Source: an uncultured Candidatus Saccharibacteria bacterium (GTDB lineage Bacteria > Patescibacteriota > Saccharimonadia > Saccharimonadales > Saccharimonadaceae). From it: 64,000 nucleotides of DNA. Location: NCBI GenBank assembly GCA_947570505.1, contig CANOTH010000001.1, positions 53,941 to 117,940 of the forward strand, given 5' to 3'. A program made the translations under genes and the position numbers. A model generated the notes under the pieces. The model had not been told where the DNA came from, ran no database searches, and saw only the letters and a list, made by a program, of their open reading frames with translations. Of this stretch, positions 8,584-63,575 are shown in pieces. How positions within the stretch are numbered: the first letter of the stretch is position 1; each line of letters opens with the position of its first letter.

Positions 8584-8790
8584 ACTTCGTCCGTAGCGGG
8601 AATGTCAACTTGAACAACGGTGCTTTGCGGGGCTATGGTGAGTCTGGCTGGGGTTGGTCGCGCTCGGCGGTGGCTTATGGTTCTGCTACCTCGGCTAATG
8701 CCTACCAACTATACTTTAATCCTTCCGTCGTCCATCCATCCAACGGCCCGAACAATCGTTACAACGGTTTCCCCGTCCGCCTGTTTTGTC
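8584..8790 (+). repeat. Silent variable-domain cassette 1
   Basis: The cassette opens with ACTTCGTCCGTAGCGGG and stays open in the frame RSGNVNLNNGALRGYG... to NRYNGFPVRLFC. It is about 70 codons of a lectin-like (FISUMP/C-type-lectin style) C-terminal domain. No promoter, ribosome site or start codon belongs to it, and an in-frame ATG at 8478 lies inside the putative RNA. Its 3' constant end is degraded compared with the other copies (CGCCTGTTTTG instead of CGCTGTTTGG). It is followed by a perfect 31-nt hairpin. Confidence 0.8.
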
Positions 8791-8844
8791 GCGGTTCGGT
8801 GCCGATCTTTTTATATCTAGTTCTTCGCTCAAGGGCGCAGAACA

Positions 8845-8875
8845 GTTGAACTTGTAATATCATTACAAGTTCAAC
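8845..8875. repeat. Perfect 14-bp inverted repeat (hairpin or cruciform) after cassette 1
   Basis: GTTGAACTTGTAAT and ATTACAAGTTCAAC are exact inverted copies around a 3-nt centre. There is no T run, so it is not an ordinary terminator. A weaker relative (TTGCAATGATCGTTACAA) follows cassette 4 at about 12910-12927. Diversity-generating retroelements need a hairpin just after the variable repeat, and the resemblance is suggestive only. Confidence 0.6.
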
Positions 8876-8918
8876 CTATGGTTTACAGAGGTAAATTCAT
8901 ATTAATCCCGGCTTAATT

Positions 8919-9131
8919 ACCGTCCGTAGCGGGCTCGTCAACTTAAACCTCGGCTCACTGGGATACTCGGGCAACTTTGGCTACGACTGGTCGCGTACTG
9001 CTATCTCTTACTCGTCACCGACCTCTGCTCGCTCTTACTGGTTTGAGTTTAATGCCTCAGTGTCTCGCCCGTCCCTCGGCCCGAACGGTCGTTACATCGG
9101 TCTCCCCGTCCGCTGTTTGGTAATACTAGTT
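8919..9131 (+). repeat. Silent variable-domain cassette 2
   Basis: It shares the CGTCCGTAGCGGG start and the CCCCGTCCGCTGTTTGGTA end with the other copies. The frame is open throughout: RSGLVNLNLGSLGYSGNFG ... NGRYIGLPVRCLVILV. The middle differs from cassette 1 at most codons, while the aromatic and serine scaffold (DWSRT, YSSPTSA) is kept. It has no start signals and lies in tandem with cassette 1, about 130 bp after it. Confidence 0.8.
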
Positions 9132-9237
9132 GATGTCTTACAACTCTAACTATACAACCTCAAGGGGTTATTTTGTTTAAGTAATTCTCATATGTTTGTT
9201 GAGCTAACACAAGCTTAGAATTGGCCTTTTCGTAATT

Positions 9238-9429
9238 AGTATACCAGACAGCGGACGGGGAAACCTTGCCAACGAGAATCGTCAGTCGAAGTACCGACAT
9301 ACTGTAGCATAACCCCAAGACGATGAGCTACCCCTATTTGCATAGCGACACTCGACCAATTATTCCCCACTGTACTCAGACGTCTTACTGAGCTATGGCT
9401 TATAGCCACAAGCCCGCTACGGACGAAGT
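9238..9429 (-). repeat. Silent variable-domain cassette 3 (inverted, most divergent)
   Basis: On the minus strand it begins ACTTCGTCCGTAGCGGG (9429) and ends GGTTTCCCCGTCCGCTGTCT (before 9238). Between these ends the frame is fully open (RSGLVAISHSSVRRLST ... DSRWQGFPVRCLVY). It shares very little of the WSR/YSSPTSA scaffold, so it is the most changed copy. Its orientation is opposite to cassettes 1 and 2. Confidence 0.75.
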
Positions 9430-9451
9430 TTCTTCTAAGCTACAAAAACAG

Positions 9452-9479
9452 CAAAAAGACCCAACCGCAGTCAGGTCTT
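9452..9479 (-). terminator. Terminator of the 274-aa hypothetical gene
   Basis: On the minus strand AAGACC, an 11-nt loop and GGGTCTT are followed by TTTTGC, just after the stop at 9491. Confidence 0.6.
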
Positions 9480-9490
9480 AGGTGCCACTT

Positions 9491-10315
9491 CTAGTTGCGA
9501 AATTCTTGCCAGTGGCGAATTTGGGTCCTTTTGGTATTATAATGTACGAGATGCAGATCGCCGATTTCTGCCCGGATGCCATATTGCTTACCGTTAGAAG
9601 TTTCTTTGGAGAATGTTTGCCACTCCGCCAAGATTTCTTGGCCTAACCAGCGCTCACCGACTTGTCCAGCATCATCAAGTTCAATCGCAAGAGTTGGCAC
9701 TAGTTGTACCACATTTCTACTATCAGTGCGGCGCCATTTGTAAACGGAGTGGTGTTTCCAATCAATAAAACCACTGCGCGCCAACGGATCGATATCCGCA
9801 ATGTAGACGTGTTTCCCAATGACCAAAAGCGGCATATCGTCATCAACCACCAAGAGCCGTCCCACATTTTCCTCACCAAACGGCGCACTAGTCATCTTAA
9901 TACCAAGATGTTCCAAAGTAATGCGGAGCTGGCATTCAACATCCTGCAGATTATTGCCGTTACAGCTCGCTAGGATTGCTCGGGCATACCTAAACGGAAT
10001 TTGAAATTGGTAGGCTTCACTACAGGCCAAGGACAAGCGCTCATCAAGTGCTAGTTTATACCATTGAGCAGTGTCTATAGCTAACTCTTCGACCTCCGCA
10101 GTCAAAACTGGCCAGAAGAAATCACGATTAGCAAGCCGCACAATTAGCATCCAACAAGTAAAAATTTGTGCACTAACCTTGCTAAAAAGATAGATCTGAC
10201 CTTTGGTCATTCCTGTTACTATACTAGCTTCAAGATAATCGTCAAAACTAGGATAAGCCTGAAGCAAATCCTGGCTTCTCTCTTGATTAAGAGATTTTCT
10301 GGGGTCAGTAATCAT
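9491..10315 (-). CDS. Hypothetical protein, 274 aa
   Basis: I do not recognise this protein. I place the start at ATG 10315 (MITDPRKSLNQ) because GGAGGAGGG lies eight to fourteen bases upstream. A longer frame to 10408 adds 31 hydrophobic residues and would overlap the promoter area. The product is soluble. The first half is helical (FDDYLEASIVTG, YQFQIPFRYARAILASC). The second half is beta-rich, with VGRLLVVDDDMPLLVIGKHV and a tryptophan-rich stretch near VYKWRR. It sits alone, between the cassette cluster and two tRNA genes, and ends in its own terminator. Confidence 0.7.
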   Translation of the reverse strand: MITDPRKSLNQERSQDLLQAYPSFDDYLEASIVTGMTKGQIYLFSKVSAQIFTCWMLIVRLANRDFFWPVLTAEVEELAIDTAQWYKLALDERLSLACSEAYQFQIPFRYARAILASCNGNNLQDVECQLRITLEHLGIKMTSAPFGEENVGRLLVVDDDMPLLVIGKHVYIADIDPLARSGFIDWKHHSVYKWRRTDSRNVVQLVPTLAIELDDAGQVGERWLGQEILAEWQTFSKETSNGKQYGIRAEIGDLHLVHYNTKRTQIRHWQEFRN

Positions 10316-10453
10316 AGTATCCCTCCTCCATGATTTGTCAATGTACACCAAAATGGTTCCTTCCCCTATTATATCAATAATAATTGAGATCAGTGAAAAA
10401 TCACTCATTTAATCTTCCCTTTTTGGAACAATGGTGGTATAATGCGAAGAGAC

Positions 10454-10530
10454 GGGTCGGTAGCTCAGATGGTTAGAGCACGGGCCTCTTAAGCCTGGTG
10501 TCGTGGGTTCGATTCCCACCCGACTCACCA
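10454..10530 (+). tRNA. tRNA-Lys(CTT)
   Basis: Acceptor GGGTCGG pairs with CCGACTC. D arm GCTC/GAGC, anticodon loop CTCTTAA (anticodon CTT), T arm GTGGGTTCGATTCCCAC and encoded CCA are all present. Confidence 0.95.
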
Positions 10531-10559
10531 CGTCTAGTTGTCACATTTAGTACAAAAGT

Positions 10560-10583
10560 GAGACCTGTCGAGGGTCTTATTTT
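10560..10583 (+). terminator. Terminator after tRNA-Lys
   Basis: GAGACC, loop TGTCGA, then GGGTCTTATTTT gives a short hairpin followed by a T-rich tract between the two tRNA genes. A new TATAAT (10589-10594) follows for tRNA-Arg. Confidence 0.6.
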
Positions 10584-10606
10584 GTGTTATAATGGTATAG
10601 AGGTAT

Positions 10607-10683
10607 GTGCCCGTAGCTCAGTTGGATAGAGCACCAGCTTCCGGAGCTGGGTGTCGCACGTTCGAATCGTGTCGGGCATACCA
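10607..10683 (+). tRNA. tRNA-Arg(CCG)
   Basis: Acceptor GTGCCCG pairs with CGGGCAT (one G-T pair). The anticodon arm is CCAGC-TTCCGGA-GCTGG, giving anticodon CCG. The T arm contains GTTCGAATC and CCA is encoded. The gene has its own TATAAT about 12 bp upstream. Confidence 0.95.
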
Positions 10684-10710
10684 TCACACTACTGAAGGAA
10701 GATACAAGTG

Positions 10711-11763
10711 ATGAAGATTTTGGAAAATATACCGATTGCTAAGCTCACGACAATACGTTTGGGGGGCAAGGCACGATATGTAATAGAAGCTCAAAGTCTT
10801 GATGACATAGAGTCAGCTTTTGACTTTGCTAAGGAGCGCAGTTTGCCAGTTTGGGTCATGGGTGGCGGAGCCAATACCATTGGTCGGGATGAGGGTTTTG
10901 ATGGTGTAATTATTCTGAATCGTCTGCGCGGTATTTGTATTAATGACCTAGATCATAGTGCGAAGCTGCCAAATGAAGTGACTTTCACTGCAATGGCTGG
11001 CGAAAACTGGGATGATCTAGTGCAAGCAGCTTGCGAGTTGGGATATTCAGGCATTGAAGCCATGAGCATGATTCCTGGCACAGTGGGAGCAGCGCCGGTA
11101 CAAAATATCGGAGCTTACGGACAGGATATCTCTAAGATAATTGAACACGTTGAGGCTTACGATACTCAGACCGGTGATTTGGTGAAAATTACAAAGCCAG
11201 AAATGCAGATGGGTTATCGACACACTCGCTTCAACTATGGCATTGATGCAGGGCGATTTGTGATTTTATCGGTAACTATCCGCTTATGCAAAGGTTGCCT
11301 GCAGCCTCCGTTTTATAATTCTCTACAAAGATATGTGGAAAATATGCATGAGACGAATTTTTCTCCAGAGAATATTCGCCGCATGATATGTAAAATTCGT
11401 AAAGAAAAGCTGCCAGATCCAGCCGAGATTGCCAGTGCTGGTAGCTTCTTTAAGAATGTTTATGTCGATCAAGCTGAGGCTGATGCAGCCGAAGCTAGGG
11501 GAATTCCGGTCTGGCGCGATGCGGATGGTAAGGGCAAAATTAATTCCGGATGGTTAATTGAGGCTTGTGGACTGAAGGGTGCTGAGCTGGATGGTTTCCG
11601 GGTTAGTGACAAGGCGGCTTTGGTGTTGATTAACGAAAAAGCTACAAGCTATGCCCAGCTAGAAAAAGCCCGGGCAAAAATTATTGAAGCAGTAAAAAAT
11701 AAGTCTGGCTATGTTTTGCAGCAGGAGCCGGTAGAGATACCAACTGGAGCAAAGATGATTTAA
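10711..11763 (+). CDS. murB: UDP-N-acetylenolpyruvoylglucosamine reductase
   Basis: MurB reduces UDP-GlcNAc-enolpyruvate to UDP-MurNAc with FAD and NADPH, the second committed step of peptidoglycan synthesis. The FAD-binding half shows TTIRLGGKARYV (residues about 11-22), GGGANTIGRDEGFDG and SMIPGTVGAAPVQNIGAYG. The C-terminal half carries SAGSFFKNVYV, whose serine is the usual proton donor. Length (about 350 aa) fits type I MurB. I prefer ATG 10711 to the adjacent GTG 10708; both suit the GAAGGA ribosome site. It begins 27 bp after tRNA-Arg and is followed by folD in the same direction. Confidence 0.95.
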   Translation: MKILENIPIAKLTTIRLGGKARYVIEAQSLDDIESAFDFAKERSLPVWVMGGGANTIGRDEGFDGVIILNRLRGICINDLDHSAKLPNEVTFTAMAGENWDDLVQAACELGYSGIEAMSMIPGTVGAAPVQNIGAYGQDISKIIEHVEAYDTQTGDLVKITKPEMQMGYRHTRFNYGIDAGRFVILSVTIRLCKGCLQPPFYNSLQRYVENMHETNFSPENIRRMICKIRKEKLPDPAEIASAGSFFKNVYVDQAEADAAEARGIPVWRDADGKGKINSGWLIEACGLKGAELDGFRVSDKAALVLINEKATSYAQLEKARAKIIEAVKNKSGYVLQQEPVEIPTGAKMI

Positions 11764-11803
11764 GGCCAATTTATCTCTGTAAAAATCAAATAGGAGTCAG
11801 GAA

Positions 11804-12670
11804 ATGAAGATTTTGAATGGTGCCGAACTGGCGGGCTACATGAAAGAAAATCAAGCGCATCAAGTGCGAGCTTTGCAAGCTAAGAAGATCCAGCCAAGGC
11901 TAGTAATTATTCGCGATAGTGATCAACCCGTGATCGCAAAATACGTACGTCTAAAGAAGCGATACGGTGAGGATATTGGTATAGCTGTAGAAGATCTGCT
12001 AGTGGATGATGTGTCGGGTGCGATTGAATATAGTAGTGGAAGGACTGATGTGCATGGCATGATTGTCCAGCTGCCATTAAAATGTTCAATGCAGACGGAT
12101 GAAATAATCGCCCAGATTAGCCCTGCAAAAGACGTTGACGGGCTAGCAACTGATATTCATTTAATGAATAATGTTAAAAATGATTATTCATCTGGTGATA
12201 TATTTTCTGAGAAAAATCAGCCTCGTTTTGAGTCTGCTACAGCCACCGCGATTAATTGGTTGATGGCCGGCTACGACATTAAACTAGATGGTCGAAAAAT
12301 CGCCATCGTGGGGCATGGGCGGCTGGTGGGAGCACCACTGGAACGGATGTGGAAGAATTCGGGCTATGATGTGCGGATTTTTGATAAAGGTGACGATTTA
12401 GCGGAGCTACGAGATTTTGATGTGATTGTTAGTGCAACTGGTGTACCACATTTAATTAAAAACGGTATGGTGAAAACTGGGGCGGTAGTCGTGGATGCTG
12501 GGACAGCGAGCGAAGGTGGGGTGTTGGTGGGTGACGTAGAAGAATCGGTGCGAGAGCGAGATGATCTGGCCGCAATTACTCCAAAAATAGGTGGAGTGGG
12601 GCCGCTGACAGTAGCAGCTTTATTTGAACATGTGTTAATTGCGGCAAATCATACTACTTCTGGCCTTTAG
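11804..12670 (+). CDS. folD: Bifunctional methylenetetrahydrofolate dehydrogenase/cyclohydrolase
   Basis: FolD interconverts 5,10-methylene-THF and 10-formyl-THF. The catalytic half has VRLKKRYGEDIGI (Lys of the active site), GMIVQLPLK and the DVDGL signature. The NADP-binding half has KIAIVGHGRLVGAPL and the family-ending PKIGGVGPLTVAAL. At 288 aa it is normal length. An extra stretch around NDYSSGDIFSEKNQ lies in a variable loop and is encoded by a copy of the short palindromic repeat (12183-12203). It is preceded by AGGAGTCAGG and follows murB by 40 bp, probably in one transcript. Confidence 0.93.
   Translation: MKILNGAELAGYMKENQAHQVRALQAKKIQPRLVIIRDSDQPVIAKYVRLKKRYGEDIGIAVEDLLVDDVSGAIEYSSGRTDVHGMIVQLPLKCSMQTDEIIAQISPAKDVDGLATDIHLMNNVKNDYSSGDIFSEKNQPRFESATATAINWLMAGYDIKLDGRKIAIVGHGRLVGAPLERMWKNSGYDVRIFDKGDDLAELRDFDVIVSATGVPHLIKNGMVKTGAVVVDAGTASEGGVLVGDVEESVRERDDLAAITPKIGGVGPLTVAALFEHVLIAANHTTSGL
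12183..12203 (+). repeat. Short palindromic repeat, copy a (inside folD)
   Basis: ATTATTCATCTGGTGATATA is shared with copies at 16048, 18899 and 19408 (inverted). Here it is read in frame as DYSSGDI within FolD. The core ATTCATCTGGTGATATA is identical in all four copies. Confidence 0.85.
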
Positions 12671-12694
12671 CTAAAAACCGTCCCAAAAGAGATG

Positions 12695-12906
12695 ACTTCG
12701 TCCGTAGCGGGTGGATTAATCTTAATAATAGCGCTCTGAGGAGCTTCGGCTTCGATGGCGACGGTTGGTCTCGTGTTGCTAGTACTTACTCGTCACCTAC
12801 CTCTGCTACTGCTTACTACCTCTACTTCAATCCTTCAGATGTTGGCTCGTCCCGCAGTAACCCTCGTTGGCAAGGTTTCCCCGTCCGCTGTTTGGTAATA
12901 CTAGTT
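12695..12906 (+). repeat. Silent variable-domain cassette 4
   Basis: It starts ACTTCGTCCGTAGCGGG and ends CCGTCCGCTGTTTGGTAATA-CTAGTT, 24 bp after the folD stop. The open frame reads RSGWINLNNSALRSFGFDG ... PRWQGFPVRCLVILV. It keeps the WSR, YSSPTSATAY and YFNPS scaffold, with different residues between. No start codon or ribosome site belongs to it. Confidence 0.8.
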
Positions 12907-12978
12907 GCTTGCAATGATCGTTACAAATAATGGTGATTTTAAAAATTCATCACTTTTTAATAGTATTTTTGAAAAATC

Positions 12979-13142
12979 GTGTTATAATAGAAGACGGTGT
13001 TAATTGACACGGTACATTGAAATTCGTTATATTATTTATGCTAACTCTATTTTATTTACGATTGATTCTGTCTGGCAGTGTCAGGTATAGGAAAATCCTA
13101 TTTCTGAAACTGCTCGACAGCAGAAATAAATATTAGAGGAGG
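12979..13142 (+). promoter_or_regulatory. Promoter and structured leader of the 13151 gene
   Basis: TATAAT (12984-12989) starts a leader of roughly 160 nt. Just before the strong AGAGGAGG ribosome site (13135-13142) lies an extended hairpin, 13068-13120. It is built from CTGTC/GACAG, GCAGT/ACTGC, TCAG/CTGA and ATAGGA/TCCTAT around an AAA loop, with only 1-2 nt bulges. This is not a terminator because no T run follows. It could control stability or translation of the downstream pair of small genes. Confidence 0.55.
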
Positions 13143-13150
13143 CATTTGTG

Positions 13151-13555
13151 ATGAAAAATGCAAAACAACATGAAACTATCGATCAAGGCGCCAGCGACAA
13201 AGGCGACAGCCCAAAGCGCGTCTGGAGCTTCTTTCCAAAAACCATGGCTGAAGTGCCGTCTGTGGAGGTATTGCGATCTTGGGGGAGAAAAAACTTGCAG
13301 TACATGTCCAAACATTGGGAAGCGGTTTTAGCGAAAAGTGGCAGTGCTGCTACCTGCTTGCTCTCAACCGATGTGATATATCGGCTCATGCAGAACATCG
13401 GGCAAGCTCTGGTGATGGCGGATGATGCTTTTCCGTTGATTCCGGATTTACGTCTCAAGGATAACTGGGCAGAGGTTGGCGAGACAATTGTTTCTTGTTT
13501 CTTACGAAATTATCTGTGCGGCCGGGATGAAATACCGTCGACTAAAGCCATATAA
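13151..13555 (+). CDS. Hypothetical protein, 134 aa
   Basis: I do not recognise this soluble, mostly helical protein (EVLRSWGRKNLQYMSKHW, TDVIYRLMQNIGQALVMADD). ATG 13151 follows AGAGGAGG by 8 bp; an adjacent GTG at 13148 is possible. Its last 29 bp overlap the next frame, whose best start is ATG 13527. The two products may be translationally coupled, or they may be one ancestral protein split by a frameshift. A long structured leader precedes it. Confidence 0.6.
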   Translation: MKNAKQHETIDQGASDKGDSPKRVWSFFPKTMAEVPSVEVLRSWGRKNLQYMSKHWEAVLAKSGSAATCLLSTDVIYRLMQNIGQALVMADDAFPLIPDLRLKDNWAEVGETIVSCFLRNYLCGRDEIPSTKAI

Positions 13556-13835
13556 GGCCAAAATATTAAGCCTAACTAAGTCAGAAATCCCGCCCGAGAC
13601 AAGAGAGGTTAATGTGCAAATCATTGATGCAGATGAGAATTGCAAATTCGAGCAAACGACTTACGATTTGTATTCGCCGTATATCATGAAGACTACCGAA
13701 GTAACTTACTTCGGTACACATCCGGATGCGATGGCAGTTTGGGCGGATCTCTGCGGGACTTTTTATCCTTTATTCCGCATAAATGAAGAGATGCAGGGTG
13801 TTTTGCGACATTACTTTAGCACCACAAAGGCATAA
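13527..13835 (+). CDS. Hypothetical protein, 102 aa, overlapping the previous gene
   Basis: From ATG 13527 the frame reads MKYRRLKPYKAKILSLTKSE and then a beta-rich part (REVNVQIIDADENCKFEQTT, TTEVTYFGTHPDAMAVWADL). No ribosome site precedes the ATG, which fits coupling to the overlapping upstream gene or a frameshifted continuation of it. Function unknown. A strong terminator follows 20 bp after the stop. Confidence 0.5.
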   Translation: MKYRRLKPYKAKILSLTKSEIPPETREVNVQIIDADENCKFEQTTYDLYSPYIMKTTEVTYFGTHPDAMAVWADLCGTFYPLFRINEEMQGVLRHYFSTTKA

Positions 13836-13855
13836 TTGTCTTATAGCGAATTCCG

Positions 13856-13884
13856 AGGTCCCGGCTGAACAGTCGGGACCTTTT
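13856..13884 (+). terminator. Rho-independent terminator
   Basis: AGGTCCCG, a 10-nt loop and CGGGACCT are followed by TTT. It ends the 13151-13835 transcript and touches the convergent lepA stop at 13883. Confidence 0.8.
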
Positions 13885-15670: not shown

Positions 15671-15730
15671 AGAGATAATTATAACACATTTTTTGGATTT
15701 ATTGGATGCGATCGACCGCTAGTACTTGCC

Positions 15731-15945
15731 AACTAGTATTACCAAACAGCGGACGGGGAAACCGTACCAACGAGTGTACGGGCCGTCGGACGGGTAGACA
15801 CCGGAGGCATTTGCGAGGAGGTCGTAAGATGTAGCTGAAGTAGGTGACGAGTAAGCTTTAGTAGTACGAGACCAACCGCGACCATCGCTACCAAAGCTCC
15901 TCAGAGAACCGCTGTACAAATTGACGTCCCCGCTACGGACGAAGT
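15731..15945 (-). repeat. Silent variable-domain cassette 5
   Basis: On the minus strand it starts ACTTCGTCCGTAGCGGG (15945) and ends CGTCCGCTGTTTGGTAATAC-TAGTT (15731). The open frame is RSGDVNLYSGSLRSFG ... RWYGFPVRCLVILV. It lies between the divergent lepA and tilS genes with no start signals of its own. It is closest to cassette 4 at its 5' side (SLRSFG versus ALRSFG). Confidence 0.8.
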
Positions 15946-15984
15946 CAAGTATAGCTAGTTAGAGGCATGATATAATCATGTTTA

Positions 15985-16878: not shown

Positions 16879-16926
16879 TGCTTACACGTACCATCAGTGC
16901 GATCTTCAAACCATTCTTCAAATTCA

Positions 16927-18003: not shown

Positions 18004-18054
18004 ATTTACATTATAACATGTGCTATAATGGCAACATGTAAAGTGGAGTTTATC

Positions 18055-18891: not shown

Positions 18892-18898
18892 TGTAGGT

Positions 18899-20557: not shown

Positions 20558-20558
20558 T

Positions 20559-21920: not shown

Positions 21921-22976
21921 ATGGCAAAAAAGACAGCAAAAGAAGCAGCGGGTCCAGATGCAGGAAAAATGCAGGCATTGGATCTTGCGATCGCTCAGAT
22001 TACAAAGCAATTTGGTGATGGATCGATTATGAAACTGGGTGAGACTCAGAAAATCGACGTAGAATTATTACCGTCTGGATCTTTGTCGCTTGATTTGGCT
22101 TTGGGTGGGGGCTATCCAAAAGGACGCATTATTGAAATTTATGGACCAGAATCTTCAGGAAAGACGACTTTGGCACTTCATGCGATTGCCGAAATCCAGA
22201 AACAAGGTGGTCAGGCAGCTTTTATCGATGCTGAGCATGCTCTAGATCCGGCTTATGCTAAGAGAATTGGAGTAGATACGGATAATTTGTTCATTTCTCA
22301 GCCGGATAATGGTGAATCGGCTCTGGAGATTTGCGAGACTTTGGTGCGCAGCGGGGCCGTGGATTTGATCGTAGTGGACTCTGTGGCTGCTCTGGTGCCG
22401 CAAGCCGAGATTGATGGTGATATGGGTGATGCACAGATGGGCTTGCAGGCCAGACTGATGTCTCAGGCGATGCGTAAGCTGACTGGTATTATTTCTAAGT
22501 CTAAGGCTACGGTGATCTTTATTAATCAGATTCGTATGAAGATTGGTGTGATGTTTGGTAATCCCGAGACTACGACTGGCGGTAATGCGCTGAAATTTTA
22601 TGCTTCTGTGCGGATGGATATTCGACGCATTGGGCAGATTAAAGAGGGTGATAGTATTTCCGGTAACCGTACTAAGGTCAAAATTGTCAAAAACAAGATT
22701 GCGGCGCCATTTAGAACAGCCGAGTTTGATATTATGTATAACGAAGGGATTAGTAAGACAGGAGATGTACTAGATCTGGCGATTCAGAAAGGCATTGTCG
22801 AAAAAGCCGGTGCGTTCTTGAAGTATAATGGTGAAACGATCGCCCAAGGACGCGAGGCTGCTAAGGCTTTGTTAAAGTCTAAGCCCGAGTTACTAGCAGA
22901 AATAGAAGCTAAGGTACGTGATAGTGGTGCTCCGAGCTTAGAAGAAGAAATTATCTCGGTGGATGAAAACGAATAA
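21921..22976 (+). CDS. recA: Recombinase A
   Basis: RecA forms filaments on single-stranded DNA for recombination, repair and natural transformation. The 351-aa protein has Walker [10 protein letters not shown] (about residue 74), DAEHALDP, the VVDSVAAL Walker B, and the L2 region [20 protein letters not shown]. The acidic C-terminus ([13 protein letters not shown]) is typical. AAGGAAGG precedes the ATG and TATAAT lies further up (about 21892), so this gene has a normal leader. No clear LexA box is visible in the 140-bp upstream region. recX follows. Confidence 0.98.
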
Positions 22977-53235: not shown

Positions 53236-53242
53236 AGCTATA

Positions 53243-53676: not shown

Positions 53677-53682
53677 TAAGAT

Positions 53683-53836
53683 GTTGAAGTTATAAAAATC
53701 CAAGCAGTAAGCTAAGTGATAAGATGCGGAACTTTGTCGCACGATTAAAACGGCACCGTGTGTCGATAATGCGTGCGAACCCGTATGCTTATCGCTTGGA
53801 TCGACTTCAACACCGATTACACGGTGTCGTTTTTTA
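53683..53836 (+). ncRNA. Structured small RNA in the type III restriction island
   Basis: One long, interrupted stem-loop runs from 53683 to 53811. Helices are GTTGAAGT/ACTTCAAC, ATCCAAGC/GCTTGGAT, then alternative AAGTGATAAG/CTTATCGCTT, TCGCACG/CGTGCGA, and an apical CGGCAC/GTGTCG. A separate terminator hairpin ACACCG-ATTACA-CGGTGT followed by CGTTTTTT closes it. The apical CGGCACCGTGT could also pair with the terminator strand, so switching is possible. It lies 60 bp before the methyltransferase start. It may be an independent sRNA or an attenuating leader of the restriction operon. No known family is recognised. Confidence 0.65.
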
Positions 53837-53896
53837 TCTTGATGCCGTTAAACTGGTGTTGTCGGAGGTACTGCTCTAAAGGTAAAGGTTAATAAA

Positions 53897-55891: not shown

Positions 55892-55892
55892 T

Positions 55893-58766
55893 ATGGCAAA
55901 ATATCCACCACTCGCCTTTGCCGAGGCGGTATCTGACCAAGCGAACTCTGCCTGGGCAGACGGCACTTTTCTCGAGAACGTCACTCCGACCACTAAGTCT
56001 CTGCTTACGTACTGGTTCGACCCAGCTTATACTGATTTGCGTCCAATTAACTTCCATAAAGGCCAGCGTCAAGCCATTCTGAACATTATCTACCTTTACG
56101 AAGTCCTACATACCAGCACTGTCCTCGAGGCTTATGACGCTATCGCTCCTCAACTCCTCTCCGAGAAAGGTAGCGGCATGGAGAGTATTACTGGCCCGAC
56201 CTCGACTTATAACTGCCCGAAATACTGTGTCAAAATGGCGACTGGCACAGGCAAAACTTGGGTGCTTGAGGCTCTAGTAGTTTGGCAGTATCTCAATGCT
56301 CGTCATGAAGATAGTGAACGCTATACGAAAAACTTCCTCATTGTCGCTCCTGGGCTAATCGTTTATGATCGCCTGCTTGACGCTTTCCGAGGTCGTAACG
56401 AAGATAATGGCGACACTCGAGACTTTGAGACTTGCGACCTTAAACAAAACCAAGACCTCTTTATTCCTGACGAGTACCGAGAAGAAATGTTTGGTTTTCT
56501 CCAAGGTAGTGTAGTCGAGAAGACTGGTATCGGTAGTACGGTTACTGGCGACGGTATCGTAGCGATTACGAACTTTCATTTACTTATGGGGGTTGATGAT
56601 GCGAAAGAAAGCGGCGAGAGCTGGAGCTTGCCAGTTTCTCCTGGTACGAGTGCTGGGCATGGCTTGGACGACCTCGACCGCTCGCTCGGTGATAAGCGTG
56701 AGCTCGAGTTCTTGCGTAATCTCCCTGACCTCATGGTCATTAACGACGAGGCTCACCATATCCACGAAGTAAAGAAACATGGCGAGACTGGCGAGGTGGA
56801 ATGGCAGAAGAGTCTTCGTTATATCGCCGAGCCGAAAGGTATTCGCTATCTCCAGCTTGATTTTTCCGCTACACCATATAACCAGCGTGGCAAGGAGAAG
56901 GTCTATTTCCTACATATCGTAGTCGATTTTGAACTCAAGACTGCTATCCAAACTGGCCTCGTGAAGACCGTCGTGCTCGACGAACGTAAAGAGCTAAACA
57001 CCGAGGCCCTTGATTATAAGGTCTTGCGTGACGACAAGAAAGATATTATCGACCTCTCCGACGGCCAACGCCAAATGCTCCGAGCAGGTCTAGCGAAGTT
57101 GAATATCTTGGAGCAAAGTTTTGCTACGGTTGACCCCGACAAAGTTCCCAAAATGCTTATTATGTGCGAAGATACCGAAGTTGTACCGTATGTACGTGAT
57201 TTTCTCCTCTCCGAAGGTCGAGACACTGACGATATCTTGGAGATTCATAGTAATAAAAGGGGGGAAGTCGGCCAAGACGAGTGGGAGGACATGAAACAGC
57301 AGCTCTTCGCTCTCGACCGTCATAAGAAACCCCGAATCGTTATCTCCGTCCTCATGCTAAGGGAAGGTTTTGACGTCAATAATATCTGCGTCATTGTGCC
57401 GCTCCGCTCTACCACTTCGGGTATTCTACTTGAACAAACTATTGGTCGAGGTCTCCGTCTCATGTGGCGAGGTAACCCAGAAATTGACGAGCTCAAACGT
57501 GAGAATCGTCACCGTATCCTCGAAGAGAAAAAGACCGCCACGAACTACTTTGATGTACTTTCGATCGTCGAGCACCCAGCTTTCCGAGAGTTTTATCAGA
57601 GCTTAATCGAAGAAGGCGTTATCGGTATCGACGAAGGCGAAGACGACCCTGACGACGAAGGCAAAGTCAAAGGCGACCTTTTGAAGGTTGGTCTCAAGCC
57701 CGACTACGAACAGTACGACTTCCGTATCCCAACTATTATCCAAGAGGCTACTGAAATCATGAAGTCCCCAAATCTCGACGTGAATCTACTCAAAGCCTAC
57801 CATATTCCGCTCTCCGAGCTCCAAAAATTTGTGCCCGACAATGAGAAATGGATTAGCACTGAAGTAACCGAGAATACTCACTTTGGCGACTTTGACGTTA
57901 CAAGCGGTGTCTTCCAAGCCAGTAGTTATAACGACTATCTCATGCGTATCGTAAATCGTATTATCAATAAACTTGGTACGCCAGTTGACGCTGTCAGTAA
58001 GCACCGCCGAGGTAACGACTTGCCAGCTATTGCTGTCGGTAGTAATGACGTAGCTCGCTTGACCGATAAATATATTCGGAATAAACTGTTTGGCCAGGGA
58101 GTAAACCCTCAGCTCCCCGAAGTCTGGAAAGTACTACGGCTTGAGCAGATTATTAACCATATCTCGTCTCAAATCTCCATGCTCATTCTCGAGGCTCAGG
58201 AGCAAACTGAAGTCGATAATGAGGCTGAGGTAGTATTTAACGCTATGTCGAGTGTCGATCGTATCATGGTACGTGAGAACTATGCCATTGAACCTGTGAA
58301 GTGTATCTATGAGAAACTGCCATATCCGAGCAATAAGGGCTTGTATGAGAAAGACTTCTGTGAGTTTGCCGATAATGACGGCGAAGTGGACGCTTTCTGT
58401 AAAGTAATCGAGCGTAAACATACTTTTCTCCGTTTCCGTTATGTCCGAGAAGACGGTTTGCCGTCAAACTATATCCCCGACTTCCTTGTCCGCTTTGGTG
58501 ACGATATCTATCTCGTCGAAACCAAAGCTCAAGACCAGCTTTCTGCCGAGAATGTGAAACGTAAACAACGCTCTGCCTGTAATTGGGTTGACCGTATCAA
58601 TAAACTCCCAGCCGACAAGCGAGAAGGCAAGACTTGGCATTATGCTATTCTTGGTGATGAGACCTTTAACGGCTGGCGAAACAAGCGAGCTACGCTCCGA
58701 GATATGCTAAATTACGCTGAGCTGAGAAATGATAGTATAATTAGCTCAGGAAGGTTATTTAATTAA
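55893..58766 (+). CDS. Type III restriction-modification, Res (helicase-nuclease)
   Basis: Res is an SF2 ATPase that translocates along or signals across DNA and cuts it together with Mod. The 957-aa protein has Walker A ATGTGKTW (near residue 116), the DEAH box VINDEAHHIHE (near 283), motif VI region EQTIGRGLRLMW, and a C-terminal PD-(D/E)XK nuclease (PDFLVRFGDDIYLVETKAQ, near 862). All key residues look intact, so the system is probably active. Codon use is more GC-rich at third positions than that of its neighbours, suggesting transfer. Confidence 0.92.
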   Translation: MAKYPPLAFAEAVSDQANSAWADGTFLENVTPTTKSLLTYWFDPAYTDLRPINFHKGQRQAILNIIYLYEVLHTSTVLEAYDAIAPQLLSEKGSGMESITGPTSTYNCPKYCVKMATGTGKTWVLEALVVWQYLNARHEDSERYTKNFLIVAPGLIVYDRLLDAFRGRNEDNGDTRDFETCDLKQNQDLFIPDEYREEMFGFLQGSVVEKTGIGSTVTGDGIVAITNFHLLMGVDDAKESGESWSLPVSPGTSAGHGLDDLDRSLGDKRELEFLRNLPDLMVINDEAHHIHEVKKHGETGEVEWQKSLRYIAEPKGIRYLQLDFSATPYNQRGKEKVYFLHIVVDFELKTAIQTGLVKTVVLDERKELNTEALDYKVLRDDKKDIIDLSDGQRQMLRAGLAKLNILEQSFATVDPDKVPKMLIMCEDTEVVPYVRDFLLSEGRDTDDILEIHSNKRGEVGQDEWEDMKQQLFALDRHKKPRIVISVLMLREGFDVNNICVIVPLRSTTSGILLEQTIGRGLRLMWRGNPEIDELKRENRHRILEEKKTATNYFDVLSIVEHPAFREFYQSLIEEGVIGIDEGEDDPDDEGKVKGDLLKVGLKPDYEQYDFRIPTIIQEATEIMKSPNLDVNLLKAYHIPLSELQKFVPDNEKWISTEVTENTHFGDFDVTSGVFQASSYNDYLMRIVNRIINKLGTPVDAVSKHRRGNDLPAIAVGSNDVARLTDKYIRNKLFGQGVNPQLPEVWKVLRLEQIINHISSQISMLILEAQEQTEVDNEAEVVFNAMSSVDRIMVRENYAIEPVKCIYEKLPYPSNKGLYEKDFCEFADNDGEVDAFCKVIERKHTFLRFRYVREDGLPSNYIPDFLVRFGDDIYLVETKAQDQLSAENVKRKQRSACNWVDRINKLPADKREGKTWHYAILGDETFNGWRNKRATLRDMLNYAELRNDSIISSGRLFN

Positions 58767-58768
58767 AC

Positions 58769-59473
58769 ATGAAGCCACAAGAAAAGAAAGAACCAAAAGT
58801 ATATCAGTTTATGGATGATACGCCAGCTTTTAGCGTTTGTGAGTTAAATGGAGATACTCATCCCGGCGACTGCTGTAATCCAATATCTCGTCAAGAAAAT
58901 TGGGACAATGGCGGTAAAATGCTGTACTATTGTGGAGATAGCGGCATTCATTTTCATTGTCATAAACATGTAAATATTCCACTTTATCGTAAGACGATGA
59001 CTAACGAGTTTGATGAGGCATATGAAGCATGGTGGTGCGACAAATGCTGCGCAGAAGATGGCGATTATTCTGGATATAAGTTTAACGAAGACGAACACAG
59101 GAGGCGCGCTCGGGCATTTGTAGCTAGCGAGGAATATAAAAACACTCAAGTCACCAGGATAGACGACCAGCTTGTACAGATTGAATTCAAAAAGGCAAAA
59201 TTGCCAAAAGGTGCGTCCGATTACTATTCTGCTTGGGGTAATATAGAGACGGATAAAAACGGCAACCCTCAGCTAAATCTGTATGTTGCTCTGAAAAGCA
59301 TGAGTGGTAAAAAAGCACATTATTTCATAGAGCCTGAACTTGGAAGACTACGCGAGGAAGTGCGAGGATTAGATATCAATCCAGGAGAAATTATTTCTAA
59401 AATCGAAATAACAATGCAAAAATCTAAAATAAGTAAAGACTACGAAAATGAGGTAGCGACTGACGGAGACTAG
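58769..59473 (+). CDS. Cys/His-rich hypothetical protein linked to the type III system
   Basis: This 234-aa protein starts 2 bp after the res stop, so it is very likely in the same operon. The N-terminal 110 residues hold many Cys and His (CNPISRQENW, YYCGDSGIHFHCHKHVNI, WWCDKCCAEDGD), consistent with zinc binding. The C-terminal half is basic and mixed alpha/beta. I recognise no family. An accessory or unrelated defence role are both possible. Confidence 0.65.
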   Translation: MKPQEKKEPKVYQFMDDTPAFSVCELNGDTHPGDCCNPISRQENWDNGGKMLYYCGDSGIHFHCHKHVNIPLYRKTMTNEFDEAYEAWWCDKCCAEDGDYSGYKFNEDEHRRRARAFVASEEYKNTQVTRIDDQLVQIEFKKAKLPKGASDYYSAWGNIETDKNGNPQLNLYVALKSMSGKKAHYFIEPELGRLREEVRGLDINPGEIISKIEITMQKSKISKDYENEVATDGD

Positions 59474-59479
59474 ATAGCT

Positions 59480-59641
59480 GTGGATAATCCTTGGTGGTAC
59501 TACATAATGGGTCAAGAAAGCACCAAGCGCTCAAACCATAAAGTCAGCACTGGAGCTTTTGTAATTGGTCTGATCTGCTTTATTATCTGCCTGATATTAT
59601 TTGGCATTGCGATTGCGTGTCTAGTAGCGATTTTTTGCTAG
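59480..59641 (+). CDS. Small membrane protein, 53 aa
   Basis: From GTG 59480 the frame reads VDNPWWYYIMGQESTKRSNH and then one strongly hydrophobic helix (AFVIGLICFIICLILFGIAI) to TAG at 59641. A GGAG sequence lies 11 bp upstream; ATG 59507 is an alternative start. It follows the Cys/His-rich gene by 6 bp and overlaps the convergent HTH gene by 4 bp. Small single-helix proteins occur as accessory effectors in defence operons; that is speculation here. Confidence 0.5.
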   Translation: MDNPWWYYIMGQESTKRSNHKVSTGAFVIGLICFIICLILFGIAIACLVAIFC

Positions 59642-60189
59642 CCAATTATCTCTCGCCACTTCTCCACACTGCAACAATGAAGCACTGGCTTGCCATAGGT
59701 TTCTCGTTCTACCCACTCTACTTTATTGGTTGCAGGATTATAGTACGGTGCGCAGCATACTAGCTCGCTAAAGTCATTGGTCGGCGGCGCATTGCGCTCC
59801 ATGAGCCTTTTCGCGGCACCAAAACCGCTAGAGGATTTTGCGTGGCTAGAATGTCGTATAAAGGCATTTGGAGGCGTTTCTTTGGCTTCTTTAGTGTCGA
59901 GATAGGTCTTTGACCGTTTCTCATCCAAGACCTGCTTCTGGGCGCGTTTTATGCGCCTCTGGTAGCGTCGATACTCGCTAGTACGCGCCAAGCCAGCACT
60001 GCTCCAGCATTGAGCATTAGTGGCTTCATGTACTAGCTTAGCAAAATCAGGCTTCTCCCTGCGCCAACGACAAAACGTGTCTTCCGATATTCCAACTCCA
60101 TAACAAGCATCACGAATAGTCAGCCCGTCAGCGATATACTGACGCACGCGTTTGGTGAGTTCTGGAGTGTATTTACTAGGTCGTGCCAT
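59638..60189 (-). CDS. HTH protein, phage terminase small-subunit-like
   Basis: The 183-aa protein opens with a homeodomain-like HTH: KYTPELTKRVRQYIADGLTI, then RDACYGVGISEDTFCRWRRE and KPDFAKLVHEA. This arrangement is common in phage terminase small subunits and some transposase-like regulators. The C-terminal 100 residues are basic and not recognised. It may be a phage relic or a regulator of the island. Its start has AGAGGT upstream and TATAGT eight bases before the ATG. Confidence 0.6.
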   Translation of the reverse strand: MARPSKYTPELTKRVRQYIADGLTIRDACYGVGISEDTFCRWRREKPDFAKLVHEATNAQCWSSAGLARTSEYRRYQRRIKRAQKQVLDEKRSKTYLDTKEAKETPPNAFIRHSSHAKSSSGFGAAKRLMERNAPPTNDFSELVCCAPYYNPATNKVEWVERETYGKPVLHCCSVEKWREIIG

Positions 60190-60374
60190 ATACCTCTACT
60201 ATAACACCAAAGGGTAGGGGTATTTTTTGGGGGGGCAAATGTAAACTCGCCAAAAATCACGTTCCATCTCACTTTCCATCTGGCGTATGCCTATTATACT
60301 TATGTAGGAAATTGGTAAAGAGAGTTTTCCTAGTTGGAAACCCCAAATGCTTAAGAAAACGTGGCAAAACTCAG

Positions 60375-60857
60375 TTAATGCTTCTTAGTATGAAACCTGT
60401 GACTCCAGTCCATACGGGTCACGACAAAGTGACCGTTTTTAATATGACCGTGTATTCTCGCCGTCTTCCCTAGGCCATCAACAGCCATCTGATAATGAAA
60501 AGCAGAACACTCCTCACCATCATCAATCTTCCTATCATCCTTATCTGGCGGGTGGCCACCGTACTTTTCCTCTACTTGGTTATACGTCATAGTGACACTA
60601 TCTTCTACGAACTTTGAAAAGGCATTGAATAGTTCTAATTTTTCCGCATCCGTTAGAGTTCTGTTCGGTTCACTTCCTATGTAGCAGTTTGGGTGAAGAA
60701 CGGTACTAATAGACGAGAAGTTATACCTGGGTTCAAGCTGATAATCGAAAGCTATCCTAAAGTAAGCCTCCGCTTCTTTTGTTAACCTTGCTTTTTCAGC
60801 ATCCGGCAATTTACTGAGGACTTTTTCGAATCCGCCAATCTTATTTGTCATCACCAC
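60375..60857 (-). CDS. Possible toxin of a Panacea-type toxin-antitoxin pair
   Basis: The 160-aa protein is not recognised with certainty. It is soluble, with a helical N-terminal half (FEKVLSKLPDAEKARLTKEA). The end, TARIHGHIKNGHFVVTRMDW-SHRFH, resembles the last strands of RelE-like folds. Its first 17 bp overlap the end of the DUF4065 gene, the classic order of antitoxin then toxin. A toxin role is inferred mainly from that position. Confidence 0.5.
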   Translation of the reverse strand: MVMTNKIGGFEKVLSKLPDAEKARLTKEAEAYFRIAFDYQLEPRYNFSSISTVLHPNCYIGSEPNRTLTDAEKLELFNAFSKFVEDSVTMTYNQVEEKYGGHPPDKDDRKIDDGEECSAFHYQMAVDGLGKTARIHGHIKNGHFVVTRMDWSHRFHTKKH

Positions 60858-61305
60858 TATAAATTGAAAGGTAAAATGCCCGCATAGTCTTTGGAGAAAT
60901 TTTTACATTACCACGCTCATCCTCACTTAAGTCGGAACGCGCTTCTTTCCATGGTTTTTCTGTGTGAGATAGAGCTTCTAGAGCATTACCGCTCTGTTCT
61001 CCATAGGTAGCCCAAACGGTTTCGAGCAATTCTTCTACATCTTTCGGGAAAATTGGCGCTTTCTCCACCTTTGGAATGTCGTTCCAGCCTTTAGACTTAT
61101 ATTTTTGATACAATGTCGGTGAAACCGGACCATGAACCCAGGCCTCAAACTCGCTATCGACAACAATCGGTTTATCCATTAAAGCGTAACCCCAAGCCAC
61201 AGCATAATAGCACAGCTTCTGGAGTTTCTTTTGCGTCATTGGCTCTTTTGCCAAAAACCAATTAGCCAAGTCCTCGATGGTTCGTTTGTCATCTGCGTTT
61301 CCCAT
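60841..61305 (-). CDS. DUF4065 (Panacea/SocA-like) antitoxin-type protein
   Basis: The 154-aa protein matches the Panacea domain: LANWFLAKEPMTQKKLQKLC, then YYAVAWGYALM and EFEAWVHGPVSPTLYQKYKS. Panacea proteins neutralise very diverse toxins encoded beside them. It has AGGA before the ATG and TATAAT about 25 bp upstream. It is upstream of, and overlapping with, the 160-aa candidate toxin gene. Confidence 0.82.
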   Translation of the reverse strand: MGNADDKRTIEDLANWFLAKEPMTQKKLQKLCYYAVAWGYALMDKPIVVDSEFEAWVHGPVSPTLYQKYKSKGWNDIPKVEKAPIFPKDVEELLETVWATYGEQSGNALEALSHTEKPWKEARSDLSEDERGNVKISPKTMRAFYLSIYSGDDK

Positions 61306-61537
61306 ATTTTTCCTATTCCGCTTATTGTATCATATTATAATGATTTTGTAAAGCAGAATTTTACCTCCTTAACCTTACTTCTATTTTAACATAAGCATTA
61401 TAAAAGGCAAATCTTTTGGTGGGTGCAGGAATAGTATAATAAGCTTAAACAACCACTGAGGCGAAAAGAGTCGGCTAGGAGAGTAGAGTCACTCAGATTC
61501 TTATAAGATAACTGTTATTGGATGCTAAAATGATAAT

Positions 61538-62578
61538 ATGACAGAGAAAACAAAATCTAACCATCACACAGTACCACAATTTTACATGAAAGGATTCTTG
61601 GATAAAAGGATTGGCAAAATTGCCGTTCTCAATAAGGAGAGCAAAAATATTTCGTACCAAGCCGTACGGAATACCGCTGGAGTAGCTGGATTCTACAACA
61701 TTCTTAGTAACTCTGGAGAAGAGATCGATGCCATTGAGAATCTATATAGTCAAACTGAAGATGAAGCGGCTAGGATTACGAGGTGCATAGTAAAAAATGC
61801 TTTTATTCCTCCGCCAGGCCACAAATACAGAGAGACACTGTCGCGATATTTATCTATGCAGTTTTTCAGAACCATAAAATCTCGCCGGCGTGAGCAACTT
61901 ATTAGCGATTACTGCACAAAAAGCTTGCTGATCGAAAAAATAAAAGAAAAAGACGCAAACACCTTAACGAAAACTCAGCGCGATTTCTTAGAATATCCAC
62001 ATCAAATTGGAGAGTTCACATTGTCACAAGATTCGGCGACGATACTGGAGATAAACATGGCTAAGGAGTATTATTTCCTTTTTTATGAGCGACCATGGTC
62101 TCTGCTATGCTACAACAAGCCCAGTTTGCTTACTAGTGATAATCCGATAGTGCTGTGTCCTTATCCAAGCTCCAAAAATAACGGCCTACTTACTGCGGCC
62201 GAGATCTGGTTCCCGATAGATTCGCGCCATCTTCTTATACTGGGCGACTTGTCCAATAGGGAAAATATAAAGTATGAAGGCCTAACAGTTAGAGATAATG
62301 AAACCAATAAGGTCCTTATGGATAGGGCAAGGCGAAATGCTAATAGTCTTCAGGCCAACCAAAGCTATATGGAGCTGTTTGGACAAAAAGAACTACTTGA
62401 AGAACAAAAGGACAACTGCCCTGCACCAGCGTCTCCGATCAGTTTCCATGATAGAAATGTGTGCACTGCCTTAGAAGAATATTATGATACAGCAAAAATG
62501 GACTTGAAGCCTAAATCGGGGTATGGCGTGCCAATAGAAGAAATGTTTAAGAAGCACACGCCGCCAATCAAGAACTGA
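61538..62578 (+). CDS. DUF4238 protein
   Basis: The 346-aa protein starts KSNHHTVPQFYMKGFLD, the hallmark of DUF4238. NTAGVAGFYNI and the later LLTSDNPIVLCP also fit that family. The function is unknown; members are frequent in defence and mobile regions. It is leaderless (TAAAAT, 6 bp, ATG). It is the last gene before the right border of the island. A second, weaker DUF4238-like gene lies at 331. Confidence 0.85.
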   Translation: MTEKTKSNHHTVPQFYMKGFLDKRIGKIAVLNKESKNISYQAVRNTAGVAGFYNILSNSGEEIDAIENLYSQTEDEAARITRCIVKNAFIPPPGHKYRETLSRYLSMQFFRTIKSRRREQLISDYCTKSLLIEKIKEKDANTLTKTQRDFLEYPHQIGEFTLSQDSATILEINMAKEYYFLFYERPWSLLCYNKPSLLTSDNPIVLCPYPSSKNNGLLTAAEIWFPIDSRHLLILGDLSNRENIKYEGLTVRDNETNKVLMDRARRNANSLQANQSYMELFGQKELLEEQKDNCPAPASPISFHDRNVCTALEEYYDTAKMDLKPKSGYGVPIEEMFKKHTPPIKN

Positions 62579-63031
62579 ATAAACCGCCCCGAAGCAAAGA
62601 TTTCGAAGTAAAACTTAATTAGAAATTAAGACGTATCTGGACCATTCAGCACAGTGAGAATGTGAGGACTCAGGGTGGTCGCCAAAATATGGGGGAGGGG
62701 GTATTAGTTTTGGCCTGCTCACCAAAAGGAAAATTCGCCAAAAATAAAAAACACAAAGCAAAAAGCATGCTATTATAGAGGTAGGATGTTTTTGGGCTTA
62801 ATCAATGCTCGCCAAAAAACATAAGAAACTTAACTCCCCTGCAATCGAGACTGCACCATATAGCTTCTTATCAAACCTGTGTGCTCGTCTCCACCGATCT
62901 TCCTCGATATGGTCAGATCGAACTAGCCTATTTGCGTCAGTTTCCGCTCCTCTCAGAGTTGGTAGCTCTTATGCCTGCTTGTTCTCTCTACCTGCGCTCC
63001 TGTGAGATTGGCGTGCACTGAGCGATCAACA
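62579..63031 (+). other. Gene-poor border stretch with a possible small transcript
   Basis: No convincing protein is seen. A 66-codon frame at 62805 lacks a ribosome site and looks random. TATTAT at 62772-62777 could start a transcript of about 250-300 nt ending at the strong terminator at 63032-63075, so a small RNA is possible. Short runs of CGCCAAAAA recur at 60233, 62682, 62736 and 62810. Confidence 0.3.
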
Positions 63032-63075
63032 CCCCCTAGAGCAAGTTCCAGAGCCACTAGGGGGATTTCTTTTTG
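63032..63075 (+). terminator. Strong Rho-independent terminator
   Basis: CCCCCTAG and CTAGGGGG pair around a 17-nt loop, followed by ATTTCTTTTT. No protein gene directly upstream explains it. Confidence 0.75.
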
Positions 63076-63244
63076 GCGATTTTTCGACGTTTTAAGGAGT
63101 TTTTGTGTTATAATTAGAGCAGGCGTACCGCAGACTGGTTTACGAACTAGTCTTTTACCGGTGGTAATAGCTTGCCAGTGGCGAAACAGAGATAATGTGT
63201 TTAACTCTGAAGAACTCCGTGGCAATCTCGTTCCATTTCGATTC

Positions 63245-63350
63245 GATGAGGTACCCCATATCGTTCAAATTAGCGCCAGAAGGTGCTTTTCTGATGGTAT
63301 TTATAGAGAAGAGAGGGCTAATTTCGTTGGTTCCACACTTTTTGTTCTTA
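63245..63350 (-). pseudogene. 3' remnant of a second serine recombinase
   Basis: The minus strand encodes KNKKCGTNEISPLFSINTIR and then KAPSGANLNDMGY, in frame and colinear with the end of the intact recombinase at 51615-51715 (KNKKCGTDKISPLFSIKIIK, then KASNDANLNNMG). The nucleotide match is gap-free over about 100 bp with roughly four of five bases equal (hand count). The rest of this gene is absent. It lies next to cassette 6 and forms the right-hand copy of a direct repeat bordering the island. Confidence 0.85.
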
Positions 63351-63358
63351 AAAGTGTT

Positions 63359-63575
63359 ACTTCGTCCGTAGCGGGATTATTTTTCTCGACGAAGGCGCCT
63401 TAATGCATATTGGAACTGATGGCTATTTATGGTCTAAATCGGCAGGAGAGTATTCATCATCGCCTGGCTGGTCATCTGCCCTTCATCTTGGATTTGGAGG
63501 GGCAAAAATAAATCCATCCAGTGGCCCCAATTATCGTCGTAATGGTTTCCCCGTCCGCTGTTTGGTATACTAGTT
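63359..63575 (+). repeat. Silent variable-domain cassette 6
   Basis: It begins ACTTCGTCCGTAGCGGG and ends GGTTTCCCCGTCCGCTGTTT-GGTATACTAGTT. The frame is open between them (RSGIIFLDEGALMHIGTDGY ... YRRNGFPVRCLVY). The middle is very different from the other copies, keeping only GAL, a tryptophan-serine pair, YSSSP and PSSGPN. It starts 9 bp after the recombinase remnant. Confidence 0.8.

What the first reader, a model, noticed from the sequence alone, without database searches (positions are those of the whole stretch)
8584..63575. Dispersed library of silent lectin-like variable-domain cassettes
Six intergenic segments of about 190-217 bp (8584-8790 +, 8919-9131 +, 9238-9429 -, 12695-12906 +, 15731-15945 -, 63359-63575 +) share an almost constant start (ACTTCGTCCGTAGCGGG) and end (GGTTTCCCCGTCCGCTGTTT). 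Their middles differ strongly, yet all six stay open in the same frame, from RSG to GFPVRC. None has a promoter, ribosome site or start codon. The constancy is at nucleotide level at the ends, and only a sparse protein scaffold (WSR, YSSPTSA, FNPS) is kept within. This is what one expects of donor cassettes copied into an expressed surface gene by recombination or retro-homing, as in pilin or vls variation or DGR variable repeats. The end motif fits FISUMP/C-type-lectin-like domains, the usual diversified fold. No reverse transcriptase, template repeat or expressed full-length gene is in the window, so the mechanism is open.
Basis: partly seen in the sequence, partly recalled or inferred. Interest (0 to 1): 0.93.

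Follow-up and report, generated by a model that had tools for sequence, protein, structure and literature searches.

The report
DGR-written archive of silent surface-protein cassettes
This bacterial genome, likely a Saccharibacterium, holds 118 scattered and likely unexpressed copies of one gene ending, some with the adenine-change fingerprint of a mutating reverse transcriptase, and one complete gene for a predicted surface protein whose ending is identical in DNA to one of the stored copies, so the cell likely writes, stores and swaps in new surface versions.

Summary
The genome has 124 cassette matches: 118 headless cassettes (two incomplete); one complete 593-aa gene, predicted to be exported and FISUMP-like, whose last 70 codons are a cassette; and five that are template repeats (TRs) of a diversity-generating retroelement (DGR). 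A contig with ten cassettes encodes a DGR-type reverse transcriptase and a partner with an Avd-like fold. In three species, cassettes near a TR differ from it mainly at TR adenines (rate 0.35-0.51, other bases 0.04-0.09). The expressed cassette is 100% DNA-identical to a silent one on another contig. A public copy of the gene has an identical constant part but another ending, identical in protein to a different silent cassette of this genome. Eight other species of the genus give 69 to at least 146 cassette matches. Best reading: a DGR writes variants into a dispersed silent store, and copying by recombination moves them into one expressed gene. Activity, direction, silence and role are inferred. 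Ten paper searches found no such combination in print.

The parts
8586..8779 (+).
   Evidence: TR-type 3' end; ranks 1 of 33 references for adenine-biased mismatch to near cassettes
8790..8807 (+). Conserved TR 3' element CGCGGTTCGGTGCCGATC
   Evidence: Within one mismatch in 6 of 174 genus genomes
8922..9131 (+). Headless cassette (variable repeat)
   Evidence: 84% identical to the TR at C9, 16 of 31 mismatches at TR adenines
9238..9427 (-). Headless cassette (variable repeat)
12697..12906 (+). Headless cassette; shares a 105-nt exact block with the cassette at C9:6063
15731..15943 (-). Headless cassette (variable repeat)
63361..63575 (+). Headless cassette (variable repeat)
21921..22976 (+). 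RecA gene, a possible but untested helper of cassette copying
   Evidence: PF00154, 466.8 bits at C1:75912-76694; ORF

Best explanation
The headless cassettes are variable repeats of a diversity-generating retroelement, likely silent, from which variants are likely copied by non-reciprocal recombination into the 3' end of one complete gene for a predicted surface protein. Steps: (1) TR RNAs (five TRs here, one in the window) are likely copied by the DGR reverse transcriptase with its Avd-like partner, which would misread adenines. (2) The cDNA likely replaces cassettes: they carry the target-type 3' end (CCGTCCGCTGTTTGGTA), whereas TRs carry another. (3) Cassettes lie in short frames and nearly all lack start signals, so they are likely unexpressed. 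(4) One gene has a signal-like N-terminus, a FISUMP-like body and a cassette as its last 70 codons; that cassette can be exchanged. Shown: adenine bias, RT motifs and relatives, TR and cassette types, one complete gene, expressed-silent DNA identity, a public gene copy differing only in the cassette. Inferred: enzyme activity, direction of copying, use of RecA, silence, surface display, and the benefit (perhaps matching changing host bacteria or avoiding phages).
For: Archive: 118 headless cassettes and one match in a 620-aa frame; the constant part of the gene is otherwise found only as two short pieces. Exchange: expressed cassette C27:14719-14928 identical in DNA to silent C19:7633-7842 with unrelated flanks; public protein P0001 identical over 529 residues, then an ending identical to silent cassette C2:49821-50030. 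Three identical silent pairs; 87 cassette pairs share runs of 20 or more polymorphic sites, against a mean of 29 and a maximum of 43 in 60 column shuffles. DGR: mismatch rate at TR A/C/G/T .421/.065/.085/.040 in G042 (33 cassettes at 80% or more identity).350/.094/.080/.074 in G000 (26 of 115).505/.075/.052/.076 in G096 (18 of 43). True TRs rank 1 of 31 (G042), 1, 2 and 4 of 33 (G000) and 1 of 22 (G096) when every cassette with enough neighbours serves as mock template. Adenines change to all three other bases (C 122, G 263, T 184 in G042). The G042 expressed cassette differs from its TR at 4 of 86 visible bases, all TR adenines. RT: IGNLTSQ and YVDD motifs, 34% identical over 396 aa to the RT of a second, textbook-like DGR on C22, best PDB sequence match 8ub7. 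Partner: Avd 4dwl among top fold matches, TM 0.85 by target length.
Against: Only 26 of 115 cassettes of this genome are at least 80% identical to a TR; 60 of 115 are below 65% and over all 115 the adenine excess is small (.417 against .24-.28). The expressed cassette is only 61% identical to its best TR, with 15 of 71 mismatches at A. Mock templates also show some adenine excess (median ratio 2.0-2.6). Two of the five TRs of G000 had too few neighbours to be ranked. The pooled adenine share of mismatches (50-65%) is below the 75% cut-off used in PMC8144416 for RTs outside the main DGR clade (passage). No TR lies next to the RT in this genome. A test for NNY codons at hypervariable sites was null (77% against 75%). 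Strain data for exchange rest on one public protein of unknown source.
Confidence: 0.72

Rival explanations
1. A plain DGR with many dead remote targets: the headless cassettes are relics of truncated target genes and are not read back into the complete gene.
For: Truncated extra targets are reported in Treponema denticola (PMC4891356, passage). Variable AAY codons cannot become stops, so open frames among young cassettes prove little. 60 of 115 are far from every TR.
Against: Expressed-silent identity over 210 bp and the P0001 ending. Among the 60 diverged cassettes only one has a stop although 4.5% of possible point changes would make one. Frozen third positions at the ends.
Confidence: 0.15
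2. The copying runs the other way: the DGR diversifies the expressed gene and recombination archives its variants in the headless cassettes, which are seldom or never read back.
For: The G042 expressed cassette is close to its TR with adenine changes only. Identity alone gives no direction.
Against: The G000 expressed cassette is far from every TR (61%), and the P0001 ending equals a stored cassette that is also far from every TR (63%): old variants in the expressed place fit read-back better.
Confidence: 0.08
3. Pure cassette switching (pilin, vls or tprK type) without any retroelement.
For: Single complete gene, many headless donors, mosaics.
Against: Adenine-biased mismatches to marked TRs in three species, RT-TR pairs and an Avd-like fold.
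Confidence: 0.03
4. Assembly or binning artefact: strain variants of one locus laid out as many cassettes.
For: Draft genome with 6.47% contamination; 13 of 124 matches lie within 300 bp of a contig end.
Against: 111 of 124 lie further inside contigs, six matches with different flanks in this one window; the same picture in other genomes.
Confidence: 0.02

Closest known systems
Diversity-generating retroelements (Bordetella phage BPP-1 type; a Patescibacteria-only DGR clade is described in PMC8144416)
   Same: RT with (I/V/L)GxxxSQ motif, Avd-like partner, intergenic TR, adenine-biased TR-VR differences, variable region at the C-terminus of a target gene
   Different: About 118 variable repeats stand outside any complete gene; several TRs away from the RT in this genome; signs of recombination between stored and expressed copies. 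Published multi-VR cases seen in passages have up to 4 VRs per DGR (PMC3521204), 2-7 target genes (PMC4891356) or 21 VRs in 15 target proteins (PMC10907252), within genes nearly always
Remote DGR targets of cyanobacteria (PMC7517822, passages)
   Same: Targets far from the RT, similar to its TR, at 3' ends of genes
   Different: Those are variable regions of CLec-encoding genes, not headless cassettes
Donor-cassette switching: tprK of Treponema pallidum (53 donor cassettes, PMC10063172, start of abstract), vls of Lyme Borrelia (PMC11499132, start of abstract), pilin of Neisseria (recalled)
   Same: One expression site, many silent donors lacking the gene's front part, segmental mosaics, donor kept after copying
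   Different: More donors, dispersed on both strands, strongly divergent inside, apparently renewed by a retroelement; likely in a Saccharibacterium
Hypervariable repeat gene of a Gracilibacterium (PMC6851277, passages)
   Same: Variable gene in the same wider radiation that breaks assemblies
   Different: Variation is in a repeat region within the gene; no cassettes or silent copies mentioned in the passages seen

Membership tests
Diversity-generating retroelement | RT with (I/V/L)GxxxSQ and YxDD motifs, related to DGR RTs | tested here: met
   IGNLTSQ and YVDD in L010 ORF (motif as in PMC3521204); 34% identity to the C22 RT; 8ub7 77.9 bits, next Drt2 32.4 (that 8ub7 is the BPP-1 DGR RT is recalled)
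Diversity-generating retroelement | TR-VR mismatches concentrated on TR adenines, to all other bases | tested here: met
   pooled share 50-65%, weaker than the 75% cut-off quoted
Diversity-generating retroelement | TR close to the RT gene | tested here: inconclusive
   373 and 343 bases downstream in G042 and G096; a cassette match 68-371 bases downstream in G145, G172, G173 (adenine bias not checked there); in G000 no TR near the RT
Diversity-generating retroelement | Variable region inside the coding sequence of a target protein | tested here: inconclusive
   Met by the complete gene and the G042 gene, not by the 118 headless cassettes
Diversity-generating retroelement | Avd accessory protein | tested here: met
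   No Pfam or PDB sequence match, but the model of a 92%-identical homologue matches Avd 4dwl: prob 1.00, TM 0.85 by target, rmsd 2.0, E 0.13; other four-helix proteins (2gsc, 2rld) rank above it
Diversity-generating retroelement | C-type-lectin fold of the variable domain | tested here: inconclusive
   FISUMP model below cut-off; fold searches covered mainly residues 48-208
Diversity-generating retroelement | Mutagenic retrohoming activity | not testable with these tools
   Needs reads, strains or an assay
Donor-cassette gene conversion (vls, tprK, pilin type) | Single expression site with many silent partial copies | tested here: met
   silence itself inferred from missing start signals
Donor-cassette gene conversion (vls, tprK, pilin type) | Non-reciprocal copying: donor kept | tested here: met
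   Identical copies at C19 and C27 in one assembly; direction not shown
Donor-cassette gene conversion (vls, tprK, pilin type) | Variants of the expressed gene in strains match stored copies | tested here: met
   One case, P0001 against C2:49821
Donor-cassette gene conversion (vls, tprK, pilin type) | RecA-dependent recombination | not testable with these tools
   RecA gene present; dependence needs genetics

The most novel reading that the evidence does not exclude
A write-store-read diversity system: a mutating reverse transcriptase writes new variants into a chromosomal library of more than 100 silent cassettes, old variants are kept, and recombination deals them one at a time into a single surface protein. 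It would join DGR mutagenesis and donor-cassette switching in the small genomes of Saccharibacteria, with libraries giving up to at least 146 matches.
Probability: 0.6. Interest if true: 0.96.

Novelty: new variant of a known kind. Interest (0 to 1): 0.94.

Why it matters
In a plain DGR each new variant replaces the last one. A silent store would let a lineage keep and reuse past variants, as some pathogens do with donor cassettes, while the retroelement keeps the store fresh. Whether Patescibacteria switch surface proteins in this way was left open in print ('remains to be seen', said of FhaB-domain proteins, PMC11809585, passage); this locus makes the question testable with long reads. It would also explain why the gene most like the expressed one runs off a contig end in G096, G130, G039, G013 and G145, G042, and nearly so here (33 bases after the cassette match). 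DGR screens that expect the variable region inside a gene would miss such stores.

Tried and rejected
Cassettes as ends of ordinary genes: rejected, since only 1 of 124 matches is in a frame over 237 aa. The DGR on contig C22 as driver: unlikely, because by eye its TR resembles its own target gene and no cassette match lies on C22; action in trans is not excluded. The C3 RT as group II or Drt type: all below those models' cut-offs (67.3 against 300; 43.7 against 390). TTCGTCCGTAGCGG as a general signal: exact in 3 of 174 genus genomes, one of them a single hit; G096 has TTCGTCCGTAGTGG. NNY codon test for a DGR origin of hypervariable sites: null. Lectin fold by structure search: not seen, not excluded. 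RNA structure of the TR 3' end: single folds differ between copies and the element hardly varies, so covariation was not tested. A first alignment of TR ends mixed orientations and was dropped. Direction of copying: could not be decided.

Papers. Passages seen: PMC11809585, PMC12102498, PMC6851277, PMC8144416, PMC10907252, PMC7517822, PMC4891356, PMC3521204. Seen only as start of abstract in a listing: PMC10063172, PMC11499132. None was read whole. Nothing seen describes a silent store of DGR variable repeats; most subscription papers are not in the library.

Full report
What was checked. The six segments are present. The genome (1,228,677 bp, 72 contigs, 95.92% complete, 6.47% contamination) gave 46 DNA-level matches to one cassette and 124 protein-level matches to another. 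Of the 124, one is the end of a complete gene, five are template repeats (C1:62523 in the window, C2:16569, C6:40116, C9:36187, C15:10769), and 118 are headless cassettes, two of them incomplete (C23:5-91 at a contig end, C4:42556-42645) and a few with odd ends (C3:22921, C16:29792). Matches lie on both strands (59 plus, 65 minus).

Exchange. The expressed cassette and silent C19:7633-7842 are identical from TTCGTCCG to TTTGGTATA, with unrelated flanks. The public protein P0001 is identical to the gene product over 529 residues and then has another ending, equal residue for residue to silent C2:49821-50030. C24 joins a 3' gene piece to a cassette one nucleotide from silent C7:16367. Three pairs of silent cassettes are identical in their cores and others share long blocks. 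A column-shuffle test on 111 distinct cassettes finds 87 pairs with long shared runs against a mean of 29; uneven constraint along the cassette could add to this. In G042 a contig end carries 273 nt identical to the stretch before the expressed cassette, then a cassette identical to silent C9:2644.

The retroelement. Cassette-like repeats without the usual 3' end proved to share CGCGGTTCGGTGCCGATC and to be rich in Asn codons. Within one mismatch the element is in 6 of 174 genomes of the genus: this one 5 times, G145 5, G130 2, G039, G096 and G042 once each. In G042 and G096 the repeat lies 373 and 343 bases downstream of the RT match. Near cassettes differ from TRs mainly at TR adenines in the three species tested, and true TRs stand out from cassettes used as mock templates (in G096, 44 of 81 matches were examined). 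The RT of this genome (C3:1304-2593) has SQ and YVDD motifs and is nearest to DGR RTs; it shares contig C3 with ten cassettes. The overlapping upstream gene (331 aa) has no family match, but its modelled C-terminal four-helix bundle resembles Avd. Its relatives stand beside the RT in G042 and G096 too.

Why two mechanisms. The expressed cassette of G000 is 61% identical to its nearest TR, with 15 of 71 mismatches at A, yet identical to a stored copy; recombination is the simplest source. The visible 86 nt of the G042 expressed cassette differ from its TR at four adenines only, so DGR products also reach an expressed gene. The frozen third positions at both ends fit DNA-level anchors for cDNA or recombination.

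Spread. Cassette-profile matches (TRs and complete genes included): G042 87, G039 86, G130 77, G096 81, G145 77, G013 88, G053 42, G063 27, G040 26, G055 21, G014 17, G046 5; G172 at least 146, G173 69. In G042, 2 of 87 lie in frames over 200 aa, one of which lacks the constant 5' end. Among the G172 rows printed (the list is cut) one lies in a frame over 152 aa (578 aa). RT relatives occur in 96 of 174 genomes, so the RT is more widespread than the store. Some relatives, such as G014, have several long target-like genes instead, which suggests that the headless stores arose from a multigene DGR family; this is inference. Of 80 named loci with relatives of the gene, 77 come from Candidatus Saccharibacteria records, so the window's organism is likely one.

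Limits. All evidence is from draft assemblies. How new cassette sites arise is open: the cassettes carry the target-type, not the TR-type, 3' end, so they probably spread as copies of targets and not as TR insertions.

Noticed in passing
L009 and L044 (G000 contig C22): A second, textbook-like DGR: small target gene, an Avd-sized ORF, an Asn-rich TR and an RT side by side. No cassette match lies on this contig; it may be a contaminant, though its G+C (41%) is not far from the rest.
   Followed up: partly
L167 (IMG/VR contig 3300035327_000487), about 3400-4200: A contig in the viral collection carries a cassette and a TR-like element (CGCGGTGCGGTGCCGATC) of the same kind.
   Followed up: no
upstream flanks of many G042 cassettes: Palindrome-like stretches such as CCCGTATAGCCTATACGGG or TTGAACCCGTATAGCCTATACTAG directly before the cassette; they could bear on how cassette sites arise.
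   Followed up: no
L041 (G000 C27) about 12918-12957: Two copies of ACGGTTAACCGTATAGT upstream of the complete gene, perhaps a regulator site.
   Followed up: no
upstream of DGR RTs: L010, L314, L312: The Avd-like partner carries an extra N-terminal domain of about 180 residues with no family match.
   Followed up: partly
window 61538-62578: A DUF4238 protein (115.3 bits) upstream of the last cassette.
   Followed up: no
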